From positions 1-45,588 of the forward strand of contig JAJEBZ010000037.1 of NCBI GenBank assembly GCA_022822275.1: a DNA stretch of 45,588 nucleotides, read 5' to 3'. The DNA is from Candidatus Poribacteria bacterium (GTDB lineage Bacteria; Poribacteria; WGA-4E; WGA-3G). The position numbers were made by a program, and so were the translations under genes. Positions 7,023 to 45,191 of the stretch are shown here, piece by piece. Below the pieces are notes generated by a model. That model was not told where the DNA came from. It did no database searches and saw only the letters and a program-made list of their open reading frames with translations. Position 1 is the stretch's first letter, and each line of letters opens with the position of its first letter.

Positions 7023-7229
7023 GGGTGTGTAAAGTTTTTGTCACCCAGAATCGCGGATTACGCGGATTACATGGATTACGCGGATTACATGGATAAGATA
7101 CCGGCCTGAGGTCACCCGGCAGCGGATAAGTGTTCTCTAAGCAATACAATTAGATGCAGAGGTCTTATCCGTGAAATCCGCGTAATCCGTGATTCCGTAC
7201 ACAAAGGGTGACGAAAACTTTACATACCC
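7023..7229. mobile_element. Family A non-coding inverted-repeat element, copy A1
   Basis: About 207 bp bounded by inverted termini: GGGTGTGTAAAGTTTTTG on the left and the complement GGGTATGTAAAGTTTTCG from the right end. A further GTCACCC is shared on each side, giving 22 of 24 matching positions. A second inner inverted repeat built from blocks like AATCGCGGATTACGCGG and their complement means that the single strand could fold into one very long hairpin. No coding frame is convincing. Copies A2 (13939) and A3 (44885) share the termini and the core. No clear target duplication was found. Confidence 0.75.
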
Positions 7230-7336
7230 CAAAGTTATGAGTGTGTAAAGTTTTTGCACAGGACATATTTTTGCCCGTTTTTTGGCGTAGTGTAAACATC
7301 ATTTTGCATGCAATTTTTCGTTAGCTCAGATTCACC

Positions 7337-7380
7337 AAAACATACCACGTGGTATGAAATAACATACCGTGGTATGTTTT
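7337..7380 (+). repeat. Conserved double CATACC palindrome inside B1
   Basis: CATACCACGTGGTATG is a perfect 16-base palindrome, followed six bases later by CATACCGTGGTATG, with AAAA and TTTT flanks that pair as an outer stem. The same 44 bases occur unchanged in B2 at 40326-40369, although nearby sequence has diverged. It could be a dimeric protein-binding site or an RNA fold. Confidence 0.6.
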
Positions 7381-7389
7381 GAAAATTGG

Positions 7390-7431
7390 CTTTTAGTCCA
7401 GTCGTAGTATGGGCTGAAAGGTGTTTTTTTT
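7390..7431 (+). terminator. Terminator-like hairpin with T run inside B1
   Basis: CTTTTAGTCC pairs with GGGCTGAAAG (10 pairs, two of them G-U) across an 11-base loop and is followed by eight T. The G-U pairs favour a structure formed in RNA made from the plus strand. The same hairpin is present in B2 at 40379-40418. This fits an intrinsic terminator of a short transcript starting inside the element. Confidence 0.4.
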
Positions 7432-7569
7432 CCAAAACACAATTTTTTTCTGAGTTTTTCGTATTTCTGTTTTTTATTTGGTTTCGTTGCTTTATGTTTT
7501 ACTCCTTTTTTTGTTCGGTTTTTGGTTTGCATAACATGCTTGTTGTGTGCTTATTTTTTGTATATATTA

Positions 7570-7722
7570 ACTCAAGTTGTTATCTATAGAATTTCAGACC
7601 AGCCAACACTGTTTCTAATAGAGAATAATTCATTTTTCGCAAGATTTTGTAGCACAAACTGTCAGTTTGTGTGCTAAGATGCACAATCTAAATGATTGTG
7701 CTACATAGGTGGCAACTTAGGT
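7570..7722 (-). mobile_element. Family C element C1, inserted into B1
   Basis: A 153-bp element with ends ACTCAAGTTG and, from the other side, ACCTAAGTTG. It is flanked by a perfect 7-bp duplication TATATTA (7563-7569 and 7723-7729). Removing the element and one duplication restores the sequence seen in B2 around 40510-40525, so B2 is the empty site. Internally it carries the hairpin based on GTAGCACAAACTG. It is in reverse orientation relative to C2 at 17836. Confidence 0.75.
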
Positions 7723-7993
7723 TATATTATAAGTGATTTTTCATGCGTTTTGTAGTTTTTTGGGTGTCTGTTTATTGGGATTTCCAATATATATCCAATA
7801 GGTTTTGGGTAAGGGTAAATCATGCGTGATTCAGAATCGCGGTGTGCACAAATTTCTTGATTTGGCGATTCTGACAACATCATGCCAAAAACTTACCACA
7901 TACGATTTTTCTCAAAAATGTATCTAAGTTCTAATTGAAATCGTTTTATTATTGGTAAGATTTACACTCGCGACACTGTTCAGAAGTTACTTT

Positions 7994-11809: not shown

Positions 11810-11812
11810 GCG

Positions 11813-11869
11813 TAGCACAAACTTTTAGTTTGTGCTGTCCGAGGCCGCAAACTAAAAGTTTGCGGTACA
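11813..11869. repeat. Paired REP-like hairpins after groL
   Basis: Two adjacent palindromes: AGCACAAACT/AGTTTGTGCT (within 11814-11836) and CCGCAAACT/AGTTTGCGG (11845-11865). Near-identical pairs occur at 40728-40782, and a single relative is at 34477-34506. Their position just after a stop codon suggests that they can end transcription or protect the 3' end of the mRNA. Confidence 0.6.
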
Positions 11870-11961
11870 AAGACTTAGACCGAGTTCACGTTACATAATT
11901 ACTAAAACAATCGGTATGTCTAATTACCTAATATGAAGGTGCGATATTCACTTTATCGCAC

Positions 11962-17430: not shown

Positions 17431-17656
17431 TTCATGAAGATTAAAAAATAATTTCGGTAATTTCTTTAGTCCCGTAGGGACGATATGTAGATACCCCATG
17501 ACAAGTGCTATAAACATAGCGTCCCTACCAAATCAACGCCAGAAGCGCGTATGGTTTCTGGCGGGACTAAAGAGGGCGTTTATTTCGTTTTTCTATAAAC
17601 ATAGCGTCCCTACCAAATCAACGCCAGAAGCGCGTATGGCTTCTGGCGGGACTAAA
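17431..17656. repeat. Family D palindromic cluster D1
   Basis: It begins with ATGAAGATTAA and TTTCGGTAATTT and then carries TTTAGTCCCGTAGGGAC and two copies of a roughly 62-base unit (about 17511-17572 and 17595-17656). Each unit contains GCGTCCCTACCAAATCAACG and the hairpin CGCCAGAAGC/GCTTCTGGCG; the first copy has a T in place of one stem base. Related clusters occur at 25438 and 44487. The unit spacing is irregular and the units are palindromic, so it is not a CRISPR array. Confidence 0.65.
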
Positions 17657-17710
17657 TATGGGACAATCTCAATAATCATGCGTATTTAGAGGTGTTCACA
17701 ACAACCCAGA

Positions 17711-17821
17711 TATTTTCTTAAATTGACGCTTATGAGTATGTCAGAATACGCGTATGGTATTTTGAATTGGTTAGGAAACCGCACCTACCGTCGAAAATAA
17801 GATAAATCCCGTTAATTGGGT
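17711..17821 (-). repeat. Partial family E element, right end only
   Basis: The stretch from CTTAAATTGACGCTTATGAG through GGTATTTTGAATTGGTTAGG to CCCGTTAATTGGGT matches the right end of element E1 (40872-40968). The other terminus was not found in the intergenic space, so this is a solo end or a decayed copy. It lies 14 bases before element C2. Confidence 0.5.
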
Positions 17822-17835
17822 ATTAGATTAATATA

Positions 17836-17989
17836 ACCTAAGTTGCCACCTAATGTAGCACAATCTGTTAGATTGTGCATCTTAGCACACAAACTGACAG
17901 TTTGTGCTACAAAAACGGACGAAAACTGTATTATACACTATTAAAAACAGTGTCTGCAGGTCTAAAATCCTATAGGTAGCAACTTGAGT
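17836..17989 (+). mobile_element. Family C element C2
   Basis: A 154-bp element with ends ACCTAAGTTGCCACCTA and, from the right, ACTCAAGTTGCTACCTA. It is flanked by a perfect 7-bp duplication TAATATA (17829-17835 and 17990-17996). Inside is the hairpin around TAGCACACAAACTGACAG. The right-hand duplication ends exactly where the GGAGG ribosome site of the gene at 18008 begins. Confidence 0.75.
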
Positions 17990-29691: not shown

Positions 29692-29847
29692 ATGGACATT
29701 AAACCAAACAAAACTGAAGCAGATTGTAACGCTGCGCTAAAAAATATAGAACAATTTTGGGACGCGAATTACGGTTCACCAGAAGGTGGTAAATTAGATG
29801 AAGGTGTAATATACACTACACTACAAATTAGAGGTGAAGAAATATGA
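29692..29847 (+). pseudogene. Remnant of a HigA-type antitoxin N terminus
   Basis: A 51-codon frame. Residues 1-35 (MDIKPNKTEAD..AALKNIEQFWDA..GSPEGGKLD) match the conserved start of HigA-family antitoxins (typically IKPI-TEADYEAAL-IE-L-DAEPGTPEGD-LD). After that point the sequence departs from the family and ends at a TGA; the helix-turn-helix domain is absent. It can be a remnant or a captured leader peptide. The TGA overlaps the ATG of the next gene (ATGA), so it could still couple translation to that gene. No HigB-type toxin is adjacent. The homology is from memory and needs a search. Confidence 0.5.
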
Positions 29848-32800
29848 AATTACTGCGAAATAGTTTGTTAATTACGGTTATTGCTTTTACAGTACTATCT
29901 GCAAATGCAGCAGAAGAATGGGAAGCACTTGATGTCGGAAACCTTTCAAGTGCTATTTTCAATACAGGCGTTGTGGGGTTTCCAAGTAACCCTACACTGA
30001 ACCCCTCAGGATGGTGGCCCGCAGGGACAAATGACTCCTATATATATGAAGGAGACATCTGGATTGGTGCAAAAAAGAATGGGGAAGTTGGGGTAGCAGA
30101 GGCAGACGGTAGGCAAAGTGAAATATGGCCTATATCAATCACACATCCTGAAACGGGTGAGAGCGTGAATATATATTCACAAAAACCAGGCTTAACATCT
30201 AAAGGCACACAGGCACAACAAGTTATTAGATTCAAATGCACAGACACGAATACAGAAGTGAACAAAGATGTAGTCCTCGGTTTAGAGCTTGATGTCAACT
30301 GCTATCAATGGAGTTACGCACCACTTTACGACTTTTTTATCATTGAATACAACGTCAAGAATGTTGGAGAAGACATACTTGAAGATGTATTTATGGCATT
30401 CAGGTATGATGTTGATATCTCCAGTAACGAAACTGGAACAGCAAATTACTCAGCGGATGATTTCGTTGCATTAGATCAAACGGCTGATAGTCTCAATCCT
30501 GATAAACATCCGAACCGTTATCTTTCTTACGGTTTTTCTAATGCATCCGCACCCGGATATATCGGTTTACGCGTATTGGATGCTTATATGGGAAATGACG
30601 CACAAAATGCCGCAGCAAAAGTCCCTTTTACAGCACACAAACGCATCACTATTGACACGGATCCATCAACTGATGCAGAGATGTACGCTCTTATTAGCAC
30701 CCCAGGTATTGAACCACTCCCCGCAAACTATGATGACCAACGTTTTATCCAATCCTACGGTCCGGTTGAATCACTTGCTCCTGATGAGTCATTCACCGTT
30801 ATCATAGCAGTCGCTATCGGTGAAGGGCTTGCTGGTTTGCAAGTAGCAGCGGATGAGGCACAGAGATTGTACGATGACGATTATAGTGCAGCTGCACCGC
30901 CGCCCTCCCCGAAGGTAACAGCTTACCCCGCTAATGAACAGATAACCCTCATTTGGGAAAGTGAAGGCGGTTGGGTTGACGACGGTATCAGTAAGAATAT
31001 AGAAGAATATGCTGACCCATTCGATCGAGCGAAAGTATTTGAAGGTTATAGAGTTTATAGACTTGATACTGCTTACGATGAAAACACTGGCAAACCCATA
31101 GAAGAATGGAAATTGTTGATGGAGTTTGATAAACCGAGTGTTTCCCGTAATTACTTTTTTGTTGAACACGTTGGTAAACAGTCAGATGCAACTATTGAAA
31201 ATATGGGGGACGAACCCTTTTTTAGTGGTTTCTTTGAAAGTGCAACCTATGTTATTAAATTCAACTCCAGCACATCTTTTGAAGTGATTAACACTGAGCA
31301 ATGGGAAGTGTTGGCATATAATCCCGATTTTCCATCAGATGGGGGAGGGTATGTCGTCATCAAGGATCCAAATACAGGCGAACCTTATCCTGATGGAACA
31401 TACCGATCTGGTGAACAGATATATTTCGGTGGGTTGTATGTTACAATTACCGACGGTCCTTCTGGACCTCCAGTTGCTGGCGATTTATTCCAAGTAGCTG
31501 CCACCAAATCACAAGCACTCGGGGAAAATGGGGGTATAAAGAACTTCTATACGGACACTGGATTAACCAACGGAATTCAATATACCTATGCTGTCACGGC
31601 TTATGATACTGGTAATCCCGAAGGAGGGTTGCCCGTTATGGAGAGCAGTCAGAATGAAACAATGGTTCATGTCGTACCACGGGCACACCCAGCGGGATAT
31701 AAAGATCCTTCTGTAGAATTGTTGCCGAATGAGGATGTATCTGTCACCGTTGAACCGATGGTATTGGCACCTGACAAAGTCTTAGGACATCAATATAAGA
31801 TTGTCTGGTATGGTGCAAAACAGATTGGCACCGGTGCCTTTATTACAGGTTCCGGATACCAAGCACCTGCTTATGAAATCATTGATACCACTACCAACAA
31901 AACTGTTGTTGAAAAGCAAACGTTTGATTGGTATGACGTAGAACATCAAGAAGCGGTTGAAGTTCTCTCGCCAATGTTTGACGGCATTATTTTGAAGATA
32001 ACTGGGGTTGATGTATCTTATGATAGTCCCACAGCTAACTCTATCAATAAAGTTGAACTTACTAAAGGTTCAGTGTCTGGTTGGTCCGTGGATATCCAAA
32101 ATGAGGCAACCGGAGGTAGTACTACCACCGGCCCCAACATCTTTTGGATAACATATTATCGTCCACATACGTATTCAATCACCTTCATCGACGATACACA
32201 CATCAAAGTAATGGACGAAGATACAGGTGAGGAAGTTCAATTCAACCCAGAACGTGCTGATGGTTATGCTATATTCACAGCTTCAGGTTGGAGTGATGAA
32301 TACAACCCACAGGACACGGAAGGATTCATTAGAATATTCCTACGTGGTGCTTATGTCTATATCGTTGATCCAAATGGGGAAATATCTGCGGGGGATGTAT
32401 TTACTGTTGAAATGGGAGGTATCAGTGCTCCACAGGACGGTGATGAGCAACTGCTAACATCAGAAAAAGTAACACTTGAAGATGAAAATATCAAAAATGA
32501 CCTTGGGAAAATCCGCGTCGTTCCAAATCCATATTTTGTTACAAATAGAGCAGTAACCTCTGAAGGTACAGATAAGGTCTTTTTCACACGACTACCGCCG
32601 CGATGTACCATTCGGATATATACATTGGCAGGTGAATTAGTTCGTGAAATCAAACACGAGAGTAATACCAAGTTCAATTCGGAAGAACGGTTAGCACAAG
32701 GCGACAAAGGTGGTACTGCTGAATTTGATCTGCTCAACCGCTACAATCAAGCACTCGCAAGTGGTGTTTATATTTTCCATGTAGAAGCGAAAAATGAAGA

Positions 32801-32849
32801 AAACGATGTAATTGGAAACAAGATTGGTCGGTTTGCAATTATCAGATAA
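29844..32849 (+). CDS. Large secreted protein with FnIII-like region and T9SS/FlgD-like C-terminal domain
   Basis: A 1001-residue exported protein with a signal peptide of about 23 residues (LLITVIAFTVLSANA). Residues about 30-340 are beta-rich with W/Y-rich strands. A fibronectin III-like module starts near 358 (KVTAYPANEQITLIWES) and is interrupted by a long insertion before resuming near 560 (FYTDTGLTNGIQYTYAVTAYD). The last 105 residues have the pattern of a type IX secretion or FlgD-like sorting domain: IRVVPNPYF, CTIRIYTLAGELVREI, FDLLNRYNQALASGVYIFHV and GRFAII. The start overlaps the stop codon of the antitoxin remnant. A PorV/PorQ-type gene follows 25 bases later. Likely role: surface protein or adhesin. 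Confidence 0.8.
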   Translation: MKLLRNSLLITVIAFTVLSANAAEEWEALDVGNLSSAIFNTGVVGFPSNPTLNPSGWWPAGTNDSYIYEGDIWIGAKKNGEVGVAEADGRQSEIWPISITHPETGESVNIYSQKPGLTSKGTQAQQVIRFKCTDTNTEVNKDVVLGLELDVNCYQWSYAPLYDFFIIEYNVKNVGEDILEDVFMAFRYDVDISSNETGTANYSADDFVALDQTADSLNPDKHPNRYLSYGFSNASAPGYIGLRVLDAYMGNDAQNAAAKVPFTAHKRITIDTDPSTDAEMYALISTPGIEPLPANYDDQRFIQSYGPVESLAPDESFTVIIAVAIGEGLAGLQVAADEAQRLYDDDYSAAAPPPSPKVTAYPANEQITLIWESEGGWVDDGISKNIEEYADPFDRAKVFEGYRVYRLDTAYDENTGKPIEEWKLLMEFDKPSVSRNYFFVEHVGKQSDATIENMGDEPFFSGFFESATYVIKFNSSTSFEVINTEQWEVLAYNPDFPSDGGGYVVIKDPNTGEPYPDGTYRSGEQIYFGGLYVTITDGPSGPPVAGDLFQVAATKSQALGENGGIKNFYTDTGLTNGIQYTYAVTAYDTGNPEGGLPVMESSQNETMVHVVPRAHPAGYKDPSVELLPNEDVSVTVEPMVLAPDKVLGHQYKIVWYGAKQIGTGAFITGSGYQAPAYEIIDTTTNKTVVEKQTFDWYDVEHQEAVEVLSPMFDGIILKITGVDVSYDSPTANSINKVELTKGSVSGWSVDIQNEATGGSTTTGPNIFWITYYRPHTYSITFIDDTHIKVMDEDTGEEVQFNPERADGYAIFTASGWSDEYNPQDTEGFIRIFLRGAYVYIVDPNGEISAGDVFTVEMGGISAPQDGDEQLLTSEKVTLEDENIKNDLGKIRVVPNPYFVTNRAVTSEGTDKVFFTRLPPRCTIRIYTLAGELVREIKHESNTKFNSEERLAQGDKGGTAEFDLLNRYNQALASGVYIFHVEAKNEENDVIGNKIGRFAIIR

Positions 32850-40138: not shown

Positions 40139-40325
40139 TGTGTTCCTCCGATTTTATTGTGTGTAACTTTTTTGTGCAACAATATATTAGCAAAATCCAA
40201 AAATTGATACAATAAGATTATAGGGGTGAGGTGTGTAAAGTTTTTGGACACTATATATTTTTGTTCGTTTTTTTGCGCTGCTTAAATAGAATTATGCATG
40301 CAATTTTCGTTATCTCAGACTCTCC

Positions 40326-40369
40326 AAAACATACCACGTGGTATGAAATAACATACCGTGGTATGTTTT
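40326..40369 (+). repeat. Conserved double CATACC palindrome inside B2
   Basis: The same 44 bases as at 7337-7380, with no difference seen: CATACCACGTGGTATG, six bases, CATACCGTGGTATG, with pairing AAAA/TTTT flanks. Confidence 0.6.
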
Positions 40370-40378
40370 GGAAATTGG

Positions 40379-40418
40379 CTTTTAGTCCAGTCGTAGTATG
40401 GGCTGAAAGGCTTTTTTT
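40379..40418 (+). terminator. Terminator-like hairpin with T run inside B2
   Basis: CTTTTAGTCC/GGGCTGAAAG stem followed two bases later by seven T, as in B1 at 7390. Stem and loop are unchanged between copies although the tail differs. Confidence 0.4.
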
Positions 40419-40615
40419 CGAAAACACAATTTTTTTTCTGAGTTTTTTGTATTTCTGTTTTTTATTTGGTTTTTGGTTTTGCATAACGTTCTCGTTGTGT
40501 GCTTATTTTTTATATATATTATAAGTGATTTTTAATGTGTTTTGTAGTTTTTTGGGTGTCTGTTTATTGGGATTTCCAATATATATCCAATGGGTTTGGG
40601 GTAAGGGTGAATCAT

Positions 40616-40968
40616 ACCAAATTAACGGGATTTATTTTGTTTTGTTGGCTATAAGTGCGGTTAGGAAACCGCACCATAGGCATCAATTTAGTGTATACTT
40701 TAATATGATTTGACCTGTTCTTGTGTAGCACAAACTTTTAGTTTGTGCACCCGTGTACCGCAAACTAAAAGTTTGCGGTACAAAGAAAGTTCCGTGATTT
40801 TATAAATCCGATAATCCTGATTCAGACACGCCTGGTGCGCGGCGAAAGCGCGCCTACAAGGAAGCAAAATGTCTTAAATTGACGCTTATGAGTATGTCAG
40901 AATACGCGTATGGTATTCTGAATTGGTTAGGAAACCTCACCTACCGAGACGGATCGCGTTAATTTGGT
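40616..40968 (+). mobile_element. Family E element E1, inserted into B2
   Basis: 353 bp with ends ACCAAATTAACGGGAT and, from the right, ACCAAATTAACGCGAT. It is flanked by a perfect 5-bp duplication ATCAT (40611-40615 and 40969-40973). B1 has a single ATCAT at the matching place (7819-7823) and continues without the insert, so it is the empty site. Inside are the hairpin GTGCGGTTAGGAAACCGCAC, a REP-like pair (40728-40782) and a GCGCGC hairpin. Confidence 0.75.
40728..40782. repeat. Paired REP-like hairpins inside E1
   Basis: AGCACAAACT/AGTTTGTGC followed by CCGCAAACT/AGTTTGCGG, the same two-hairpin layout as after groL (11813-11869), with a different short linker. Confidence 0.6.
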
Positions 40969-41072
40969 ATCATACGTGCTTCAGACAAAAACTTTACACA
41001 TCCGTAGTAGTACAGTAGTTGACAAACTTTAGGAATTGTGGAAAACTTAAGAAAAAATATAGAAAGGATGTA

Positions 41073-44226: not shown

Positions 44227-44320
44227 GTAGTTCACTTTGAAATCGTAGATATAGGTTTAATTATACATTATAGACAGGGTTATTTATGGTGAAGTTTGAA
44301 AATAATTACACACGTCATCC

Positions 44321-44384
44321 GTAGGAGCGATCTCCGAATCGCGACGAAATGTTTTTATAGTCGGGAATCGGAGTTCCCTCCTAC
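44321..44384. repeat. Imperfect hairpin repeat after the nnrDE promoter region
   Basis: GTAGGAG...CCGAATCGCGAC pairs with GTCGGGAATCGG...CTCCTAC across an ATGTTTTTATA-type loop. This is a single copy of a GTAGGAG/CTCCTAC palindrome; no second copy is seen in the window. Confidence 0.45.
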
Positions 44385-44486
44385 CGTTCAAAATGTGTAA
44401 TTAATTCCATAAGTTACCATAGTTTTCAATATTTTTGATAATTCTTTGTTATGGCGTTAATTTTACATGTTGCCATCTTGTCCGTG

Positions 44487-44646
44487 TCTTTAGTCCCATA
44501 GGGACGATATATTTATAGAAAAATGTTGTCCACCCCTCTTGAGTTCTGTAGGAACGACATAGAAGGATAAACATATCGTCCCTACGGGACTAAAGAAGGT
44601 GTTTATAACGTATTTCTATAAACATATCGTCCCTACGGGACTAAAG
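44487..44646. repeat. Family D palindromic cluster D3
   Basis: Several blocks of TTTAGTCCC(G/A)TAGGGACGATAT and the complement, with ATAAACATATCGTCCCTACG twice. It lacks the CGCCAGAAGC hairpin units of D1 and D2. Confidence 0.55.
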
Positions 44647-44884
44647 AAGCGTCTTAACTAATGAAAAATGCTTACAACGTTCTTTTTATGAAAAACAATA
44701 TTTAACAATAAGTTATTTAGCACAACTCGTCAAAATAAGTAAATAGTAGCACTAACATTTGTGATAAAATCTATCCGAAAAACTTAAAACTAAATAACCC
44801 TGGAAAAAGTATATTGAGTAACAATCTGAATTGTGATACATTATAGCATTGATTTTTTCAAAGGTCAACCTCTAACAGGACTAT

Positions 44885-45088
44885 GGGTGTGTAAAGTTTT
44901 TGGGATAGTGTTTCAGAATCGCGGATTACGCGGATGACACGGAGAGCGCGGATAAGACTTATGCAATTGACCACATTGCTTAGAAAACGTTTATTCTCCG
45001 CAATAAAACCTCATGCAGGTATCTTATCCGCGTCCTCCGCGCAATCCGTGTCATCCGCGATTCTGTACGCCAAAAACTTTACCCACCC
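44885..45088. mobile_element. Family A non-coding element, copy A3
   Basis: About 204 bp with ends GGGTGTGTAAAGTTTTTG and, from the right, GGGTGGGTAAAGTTTTTG. The core is in the opposite orientation to A1 and A2 (CCTCATGCAGGTATCTTATCC reads as their complement). Inner blocks around GAATCGCGGAT pair with ATCCGCGATTC. It lies about 100 bases before the last gene. Confidence 0.75.
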
Positions 45089-45191
45089 CTGGGACGATTG
45101 CAGATCAAACAATATAGTTATTAGTCATAAACGATCTATTGATTGTAATAAAGAATACAAATATCTTTGGATCACAACGAAGGAAATATTA

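What the first reader, a model, noticed from the sequence alone, without database searches (positions are those of the whole stretch)
7239..7903. Reciprocal empty sites: two copies of one non-coding element each carry a different nested insertion
B1 (7239-7903) and B2 (40230-41003) are copies of the same element. B1 contains C1 (7570-7722) with a TATATTA duplication where B2 runs through unbroken. B2 contains E1 (40616-40968) with an ATCAT duplication where B1 runs through unbroken at 7819-7823. This shows directly, within one contig, that C and E are mobile, and gives their exact ends. It also dates B before both.
Basis: seen in the sequence. Interest (0 to 1): 0.8.

Follow-up and report, generated by a model that had tools for sequence, protein, structure and literature searches.

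The report
Nested mini-transposons in a sponge bacterium
Two copies of one short non-coding jumping element in a sponge-associated Poribacterium have each been hit by a different second jumping element, and the three families appear to depend on different kinds of transposase, one of which places its elements just upstream of gene promoters.

Summary
B1 and B2 are about 91% identical copies of one element. B1 carries C and B2 carries E; each site runs through unbroken in the other copy and in about ten further copies. All three are MITE families dispersed through a Candidatus Poribacteria genome. C is 153 bp with a 7-bp TANNNTA duplication, and its ends match an IS982 element in a congener. 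B has ISKra4 ends (GGGTGTGTAAAGTTTTTG, 8-9 bp duplications); a complete congener genome holds intact ISKra4 elements with the same ends. The homology of B1 and B2 also stops at 7822; their right tails differ. ISKra4 and IS982 transposases are undetected in this assembly, so the MITEs look orphaned, or the transposase genes were not assembled. Two things go beyond the finding. ISKra4-type ends lie 14-18 bp upstream of outward sigma70-like promoters (53 of 240 ends; other windows 1-12; C and E ends 0-2), matching published ISKra4 targeting. B also carries a covarying two-hairpin core, absent from Rfam, that occurs outside B across the genus. Kind known; details new.

The parts
7239..7903 (+). 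B1: ISKra4-type MITE copy, left terminal repeat GAGTGTGTAAAGTTTTTG, degenerate right end CAAAAACTTACCACATACG
   Evidence: more than 300 copies of the terminal repeat in the genome
7563..7569 (.). left 7-bp target duplication TATATTA of C
7570..7722 (+). C: 153-bp IS982-type MITE nested in B1, ends ACTCAAGTTG...CAACTTAGGT
   Evidence: family alignment and duplications; partner IS982 in L158
7723..7729 (.). right 7-bp target duplication TATATTA of C
7329..7437 (+). two-hairpin core of B1
   Evidence: covariance model hit 112 bits; covariation test
40230..41003 (+). B2: second copy of the ISKra4-type MITE, ends GGTGTGTAAAGTTTTTG and CAAAAACTTTACACATCC
40318..40426 (+). two-hairpin core of B2 (a-a'-a-a' hairpin, then a second hairpin followed by a T run)
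   Evidence: folding z -8.05; covariation; model hit 114 bits
40612..40614 (.). left 3-bp target duplication TCA of E
40615..40969 (+). E: 355-bp MITE nested in B2, ends TACCAAATTAACG...CGTTAATTTGGTA
   Evidence: corrects 40616-40968
40970..40972 (.). right 3-bp target duplication TCA of E
41019..41024 (+). outward -35 box TTGACA, 15 bp beyond the right end of B2, upstream of the enolase-superfamily gene; the -10 at 17 bp spacing (AAAACT) is weak
   Evidence: sequence
7023..7229 (+). D: neighbouring MITE with the same ISKra4-type ends but a different, hairpin-rich interior

Best explanation
B, C and E are three unrelated families of MITEs: short, non-coding, non-autonomous DNA transposons moved in trans. 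B is moved by an ISKra4-group (Mutator-superfamily) transposase, makes 8-9 bp duplications, and is placed about 15-17 bp upstream of sigma70-like promoters. C is moved by an IS982 transposase into TANNNTA. E is moved by an unidentified transposase that duplicates TNA. B inserted first, before the split from the sister species Plut_88891. Later C entered the A+T-rich interior of B1, and E entered the tail of B2. Shown: the alignment, empty sites, duplications, terminal repeats shared with full IS elements in congeners, and the promoter offset. Inferred: that these transposases actually move the MITEs, and the identity of E's transposase family.
For: Reciprocal empty sites, with about ten further unoccupied copies at each site. 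C: duplications of the form TANNNTA on most of 28 intact copies; an IS982 element (NF033520, 156 bits against a cut-off of 130) in congener G003 bounded by ACCTAAGTTGCCACCTAT / ACCCAAGTTGCTACCTAT; a further IS982-type locus in the genus shows a 7-bp TATATTA duplication (L151). B: 328 terminal-repeat hits in the genome against 0 for the reversed pattern; in complete congener G010 two intact elements with the same ends encode ISKra4 transposases (NF033572, 226 and 239 bits against a cut-off of 205), one of them 1466 bp with a 9-bp duplication; 8-9 bp duplications on MITE copies; a promoter 14-18 bp outside 53 of 240 ends, against 1-12 in other 5-bp windows and 0-2 for E and C ends, as published for ISKra4-group elements (PMC3942029). 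E: 3-bp TNA on 30 of 37 elements, and a clean empty site in the window at about 21.69 kb for an 88-bp E-type insertion in the sister species.
Against: No ISKra4 or IS982 transposase was found in this genome itself, so the partners are known only from congeners; the draft assembly may have lost multi-copy IS genes. B1 and B2 keep no target duplication. The E site in the sister species' B2 copy is rearranged, so its lack of E does not prove a clean pre-insertion state. E's autonomous element was not found.
Confidence: 0.9

Rival explanations
1. The differences between B1 and B2 are deletions or recombination products between related repeats, not insertions of C and E.
For: The B tail is mosaic, B copies differ by large internal indels, and an element at the B1 site shrank to a two-ended remnant in the sister species.
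Against: C and E are flanked by duplications that follow a family-wide rule, occur at many unrelated sites, and are missing from nearly all B copies at exactly those points.
Confidence: 0.04
2. B is not primarily a transposon but a structured non-coding RNA or operator module that ISKra4 ends have picked up and spread.
For: The two-hairpin core covaries (score 0.247 against 0.132 shuffled and at most 0.098 slid), folds with z -8.05, and occurs in intergenic spacers of congeners without ISKra4 ends.
Against: No expression data; variable palindrome arms fit a DNA-level palindrome as well as an RNA; other ISKra4-type MITEs such as D lack the core.
Confidence: 0.2
3. E is an IS630/mariner-type MITE with a TA duplication, or has the 5-bp duplication given by the first reader.
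For: Most copies have AT next to ACC...GGT, and ATCAT is literally repeated at B2.
Against: Counting across 37 elements: 2-bp 1/37, 3-bp 30/37, 5-bp 0/37 with ends at TACC...GGTA. The 5-bp reading fits 2 of 13 elements, within the control maximum. The B consensus at the empty site, GAATCATACGTG, agrees with a 3-bp TCA duplication.
Confidence: 0.04

Closest known systems
ISKra4 family (p-MULT 4, Mutator superfamily; Guerillot et al. 2014, PMC3942029)
   Same: terminal repeat starting GGG, 8-9 bp duplication, insertion 13-17 bp upstream of sigmaA/70 promoters; full elements with identical ends in a congener
   Different: B and D encode no transposase, and no ISKra4 transposase is detectable in this genome; B carries a structured core
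IS982 family
   Same: C ends match a full IS982 element in a congener (one end base for base over 18 bp); other IS982 loci in the genus show 7-bp duplications
   Different: C is 153 bp, non-coding, with two internal hairpins; no IS982 transposase detected in this genome
3-bp (TNA/TWA) duplication elements such as IS5-group ISs and PIF/Harbinger MITEs (partly from own knowledge)
   Same: 3-bp TNA duplication, short inverted repeats, A+T-rich targets
   Different: no transposase with E ends found; terminal sequence TACCAAATTAAC not matched to a known IS here
Nested MITEs and transposons in general
   Same: element within element with target duplications
   Different: two sibling copies in one contig each carry a different nested element, so each is the other's empty site

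Membership tests
ISKra4-derived MITE (B) | terminal inverted repeats shared with a full ISKra4 element | tested here: met
   GGGTGTGTAAAGTTTTTG in G010 elements L208 and L212 and in B, D and other MITEs
ISKra4-derived MITE (B) | 8-9 bp target duplication | tested here: inconclusive
   met on about 10 of 36 own-genome family pairs against about 0 in the control, and on L208; not preserved at B1 or B2 themselves
ISKra4-derived MITE (B) | insertion just upstream of sigmaA/70 promoters (some ISKra4 members) | tested here: met
   53 of 240 ends at 14-18 bp; B2 has TTGACA at 15 bp with a weak -10
ISKra4-derived MITE (B) | mobilisation in trans by the transposase | not testable with these tools
   needs a transposition assay; no partner gene in this assembly
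IS982-derived MITE (C) | terminal repeats shared with a full IS982 element | tested here: met
   L158 and L159; NF033520 above cut-off for L158
IS982-derived MITE (C) | target duplication of constant length | tested here: met
   7-bp TANNNTA on most intact copies
IS5-group-like MITE (E) | 3-bp TNA duplication | tested here: met
   30 of 37
IS5-group-like MITE (E) | autonomous element with the same ends | tested here: not met
   pattern search over 18 congeners and fetched candidates gave no transposase-bearing element; not filed as a member
Rfam RNA family (B core) | match at gathering score | tested here: not met
   0 matches in the window; nothing significant on the core of B2

The most novel reading that the evidence does not exclude
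B is a promoter-seeking MITE that carries a conserved, covarying two-hairpin module, either an undescribed structured RNA or a palindromic operator array. ISKra4-type targeting drops it directly upstream of many promoters, so it could spread a regulatory element through the genome.
Probability: 0.15. Interest if true: 0.75.

Novelty: new member of a known kind. Interest (0 to 1): 0.5.

Why it matters
The pair gives exact ends for three MITE families at once and a relative order of insertion. Comparison with congeners links two of them to named transposase families and shows that a short element without a transposase gene keeps ISKra4's unusual promoter-upstream targeting. It makes Candidatus Poribacteria a usable natural system for studying how MITEs without a detectable partner persist, nest and accumulate beside promoters, and it exposes a conserved structured module with no Rfam entry.

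Tried and rejected
IS256 (PF00872) as partner of B, suggested by the end sequence: 0 matches in own genome and only terminal-repeat-free fragments in one congener. IS630/TA duplication for E: rejected by duplication counts. The IS630 found between ISKra4-type ends in G010 (L210) has different ends and is itself nested in a broken ISKra4 element. A 1566-bp element with E ends in G004 (L380) has no transposase-sized ORF. My first duplication scans of ISKra4-type ends used a wrong boundary and showed almost none; corrected. Rfam gave only below-threshold microRNA look-alikes on a hairpin inside E. Phage and plasmid collections: no match to the core or to B. A gene next to the core in some congeners is only weakly DUF2280-like. 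The held literature has no paper joining Poribacteria and MITEs; subscription journals are not covered.

Full report
The window and its organism. The window is contig C50 of a 4.53-Mb, 320-contig assembly. A protein next to B2 has its closest relatives in sponge MAGs of Candidatus Poribacteria (98% identity in isolate Plut_88891). Congener G007 is that MAG: its contig is also 82,777 bases and carries the same loci.

Observation. B1 and B2 align in six blocks with 350 of 384 bases identical. C interrupts B1 only, and E interrupts B2 only. In the own genome and G007, at least 11 other B copies run unbroken through the C site, and about ten run unbroken through the E site. The pair is therefore a genuine reciprocal empty-site pair, far beyond chance. 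The homology of the two B copies ends at 7822: the last 80 bases of B1 are a tail shared with other elements that have the same terminal repeat, whereas B2 has a short tail.

C. Thirty copies were read. Most of the 28 intact ones have a perfect 7-bp duplication of the form TANNNTA, with ends ACYCAAGTTGCTACC / ACCTAAGTTGCCACC. The own genome has no match to the IS982 domain model PF13612, but congeners do. In G003 (L158) and G017 (L159) elements of about 0.93 kb carry C's terminal repeats, and the L158 protein passes the curated cut-off for IS982 transposases. Another IS982-type locus in the genus shows a 7-bp TATATTA duplication (L151). C is an IS982-type MITE.

At B2 this means 355 bp at 40615-40969 with TCA on both sides, and removing it restores the B consensus GAATCATACGTG. 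The sister species has an 88-bp E-type insertion with duplicated TTA where this window reads CTTAGTAAG at about 21.69 kb, a clean inter-species empty site. The E end pattern occurs in 17 of 18 congeners, but no transposase-bearing element with these ends was found. An IS5-like origin is inferred from the TNA rule alone.

B. Its terminal repeat GTGTGTAAAGTTTTTG has 328 hits in the own genome at up to one mismatch, against none for the reversed control. It bounds elements with different interiors, for example D at 7023-7229 and others at 13.9 and 44.9 kb. In the single-contig congener G010, elements with the same ends encode ISKra4-family transposases; L208 is 1466 bp with a 9-bp duplication. 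MITE copies show 8- or 9-bp duplications. Own genome and G007 have no ISKra4 match. Published ISKra4-group elements insert 13-17 bp upstream of sigmaA promoters (PMC3942029). The same holds here: 53 of 240 distinct ends have a sigma70-like promoter reading outward with its -35 box 14-18 bp away. Other 5-bp windows give 1-12, the 12 coming from the adjacent 19-23 bp window. C ends give 2 of 121 and E ends 0 of 92 in the same window (earlier count). End sequence, duplication and target choice thus point to the same transposase family. B2 has TTGACA 15 bp beyond its right end, before the enolase-superfamily gene, with a weak -10.

Age. In the sister species B is present at the B2 site (about 78% identical in the main block) without E, but the tail is rearranged, so E's absence is not a clean excision. 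At the B1 site it has only a remnant of about 50 bp with both terminal repeats and the same right-hand sequence. Both B insertions therefore predate that split. C and E are younger than B by nesting alone.

Structured core. Positions 40318-40426 and 7329-7437 form a long hairpin with repeated palindromic arms (CATACC...GGTATG twice) followed by a second hairpin and a T run. The fold is far more stable than shuffles (z -8.05). On 17 sequences from the genus the structure is supported by covariation: score 0.247 against 0.132 (shuffled) and at most 0.098 (slid), with 15 pairs changed on both sides. The structure was derived from one of these sequences, which helps it against the slid controls. 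The module also lies in intergenic spacers of congeners outside ISKra4-type ends, with quite different arm sequences, and has no Rfam match. Whether it acts as RNA or DNA is not shown.

Verdict. The finding is real and ordinary in kind: nested bacterial MITEs. It is unusually clean. Two of the three partners were identified in congeners, one stated end was corrected, and a promoter-proximal insertion rule was recovered. The most novel reading is that the promoter-seeking MITE carries a conserved structured module.

Noticed in passing
44885-45091: ISKra4-type MITE absent in sister species G007, where the site reads GGACTAT GGACTAT; the window also has a (degenerate) copy on each side, so G007 may hold an excision footprint that kept both target copies.
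   Followed up: partly
44271-44802: 532-bp element ending CAGGGTTATTTA...TAAATAACCCTG, missing in G007; the same ends flank part of a different insertion in G007.
   Followed up: partly
11812-11892: 81-bp double-hairpin unit (GTAGCACAAACT...AGTTTGTGC) absent in G007; similar hairpins sit inside C and E, suggesting a shared short palindromic unit.
   Followed up: partly
about 21690, G007 counterpart in L316 19347-19434: E-type 88-bp insertion in G007 with a TTA duplication where the window is empty.
   Followed up: yes
17464-17988: Composite intergenic block: tandem CCAGAAGCGCGTATGGCTTCTGG hairpins, an E-like end and a second C copy with TATATTA duplications; G007 has unrelated sequence at the same place.
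   Followed up: partly
L141 1460-2290, L128 40-869, L145, L182, L194, L211: In congeners the two-hairpin core lies directly upstream of a gene starting MKLQEHHKEFAVKCFA (weak DUF2280 similarity) or of remnants that look like it; the palindrome arms differ between copies as if a binding site were changing.
   Followed up: partly
L005, L012, L019, L139: Longer B copies carry a second palindrome (CCGTACC...GGTACGG) that B1 and B2 lack.
   Followed up: partly
L210 454-2293: In G010 an IS630 element with 36-bp inverted repeats sits inside a broken ISKra4 element: another nested case.
   Followed up: partly
29844-32849: 1001-aa open reading frame with no Pfam match.
   Followed up: no
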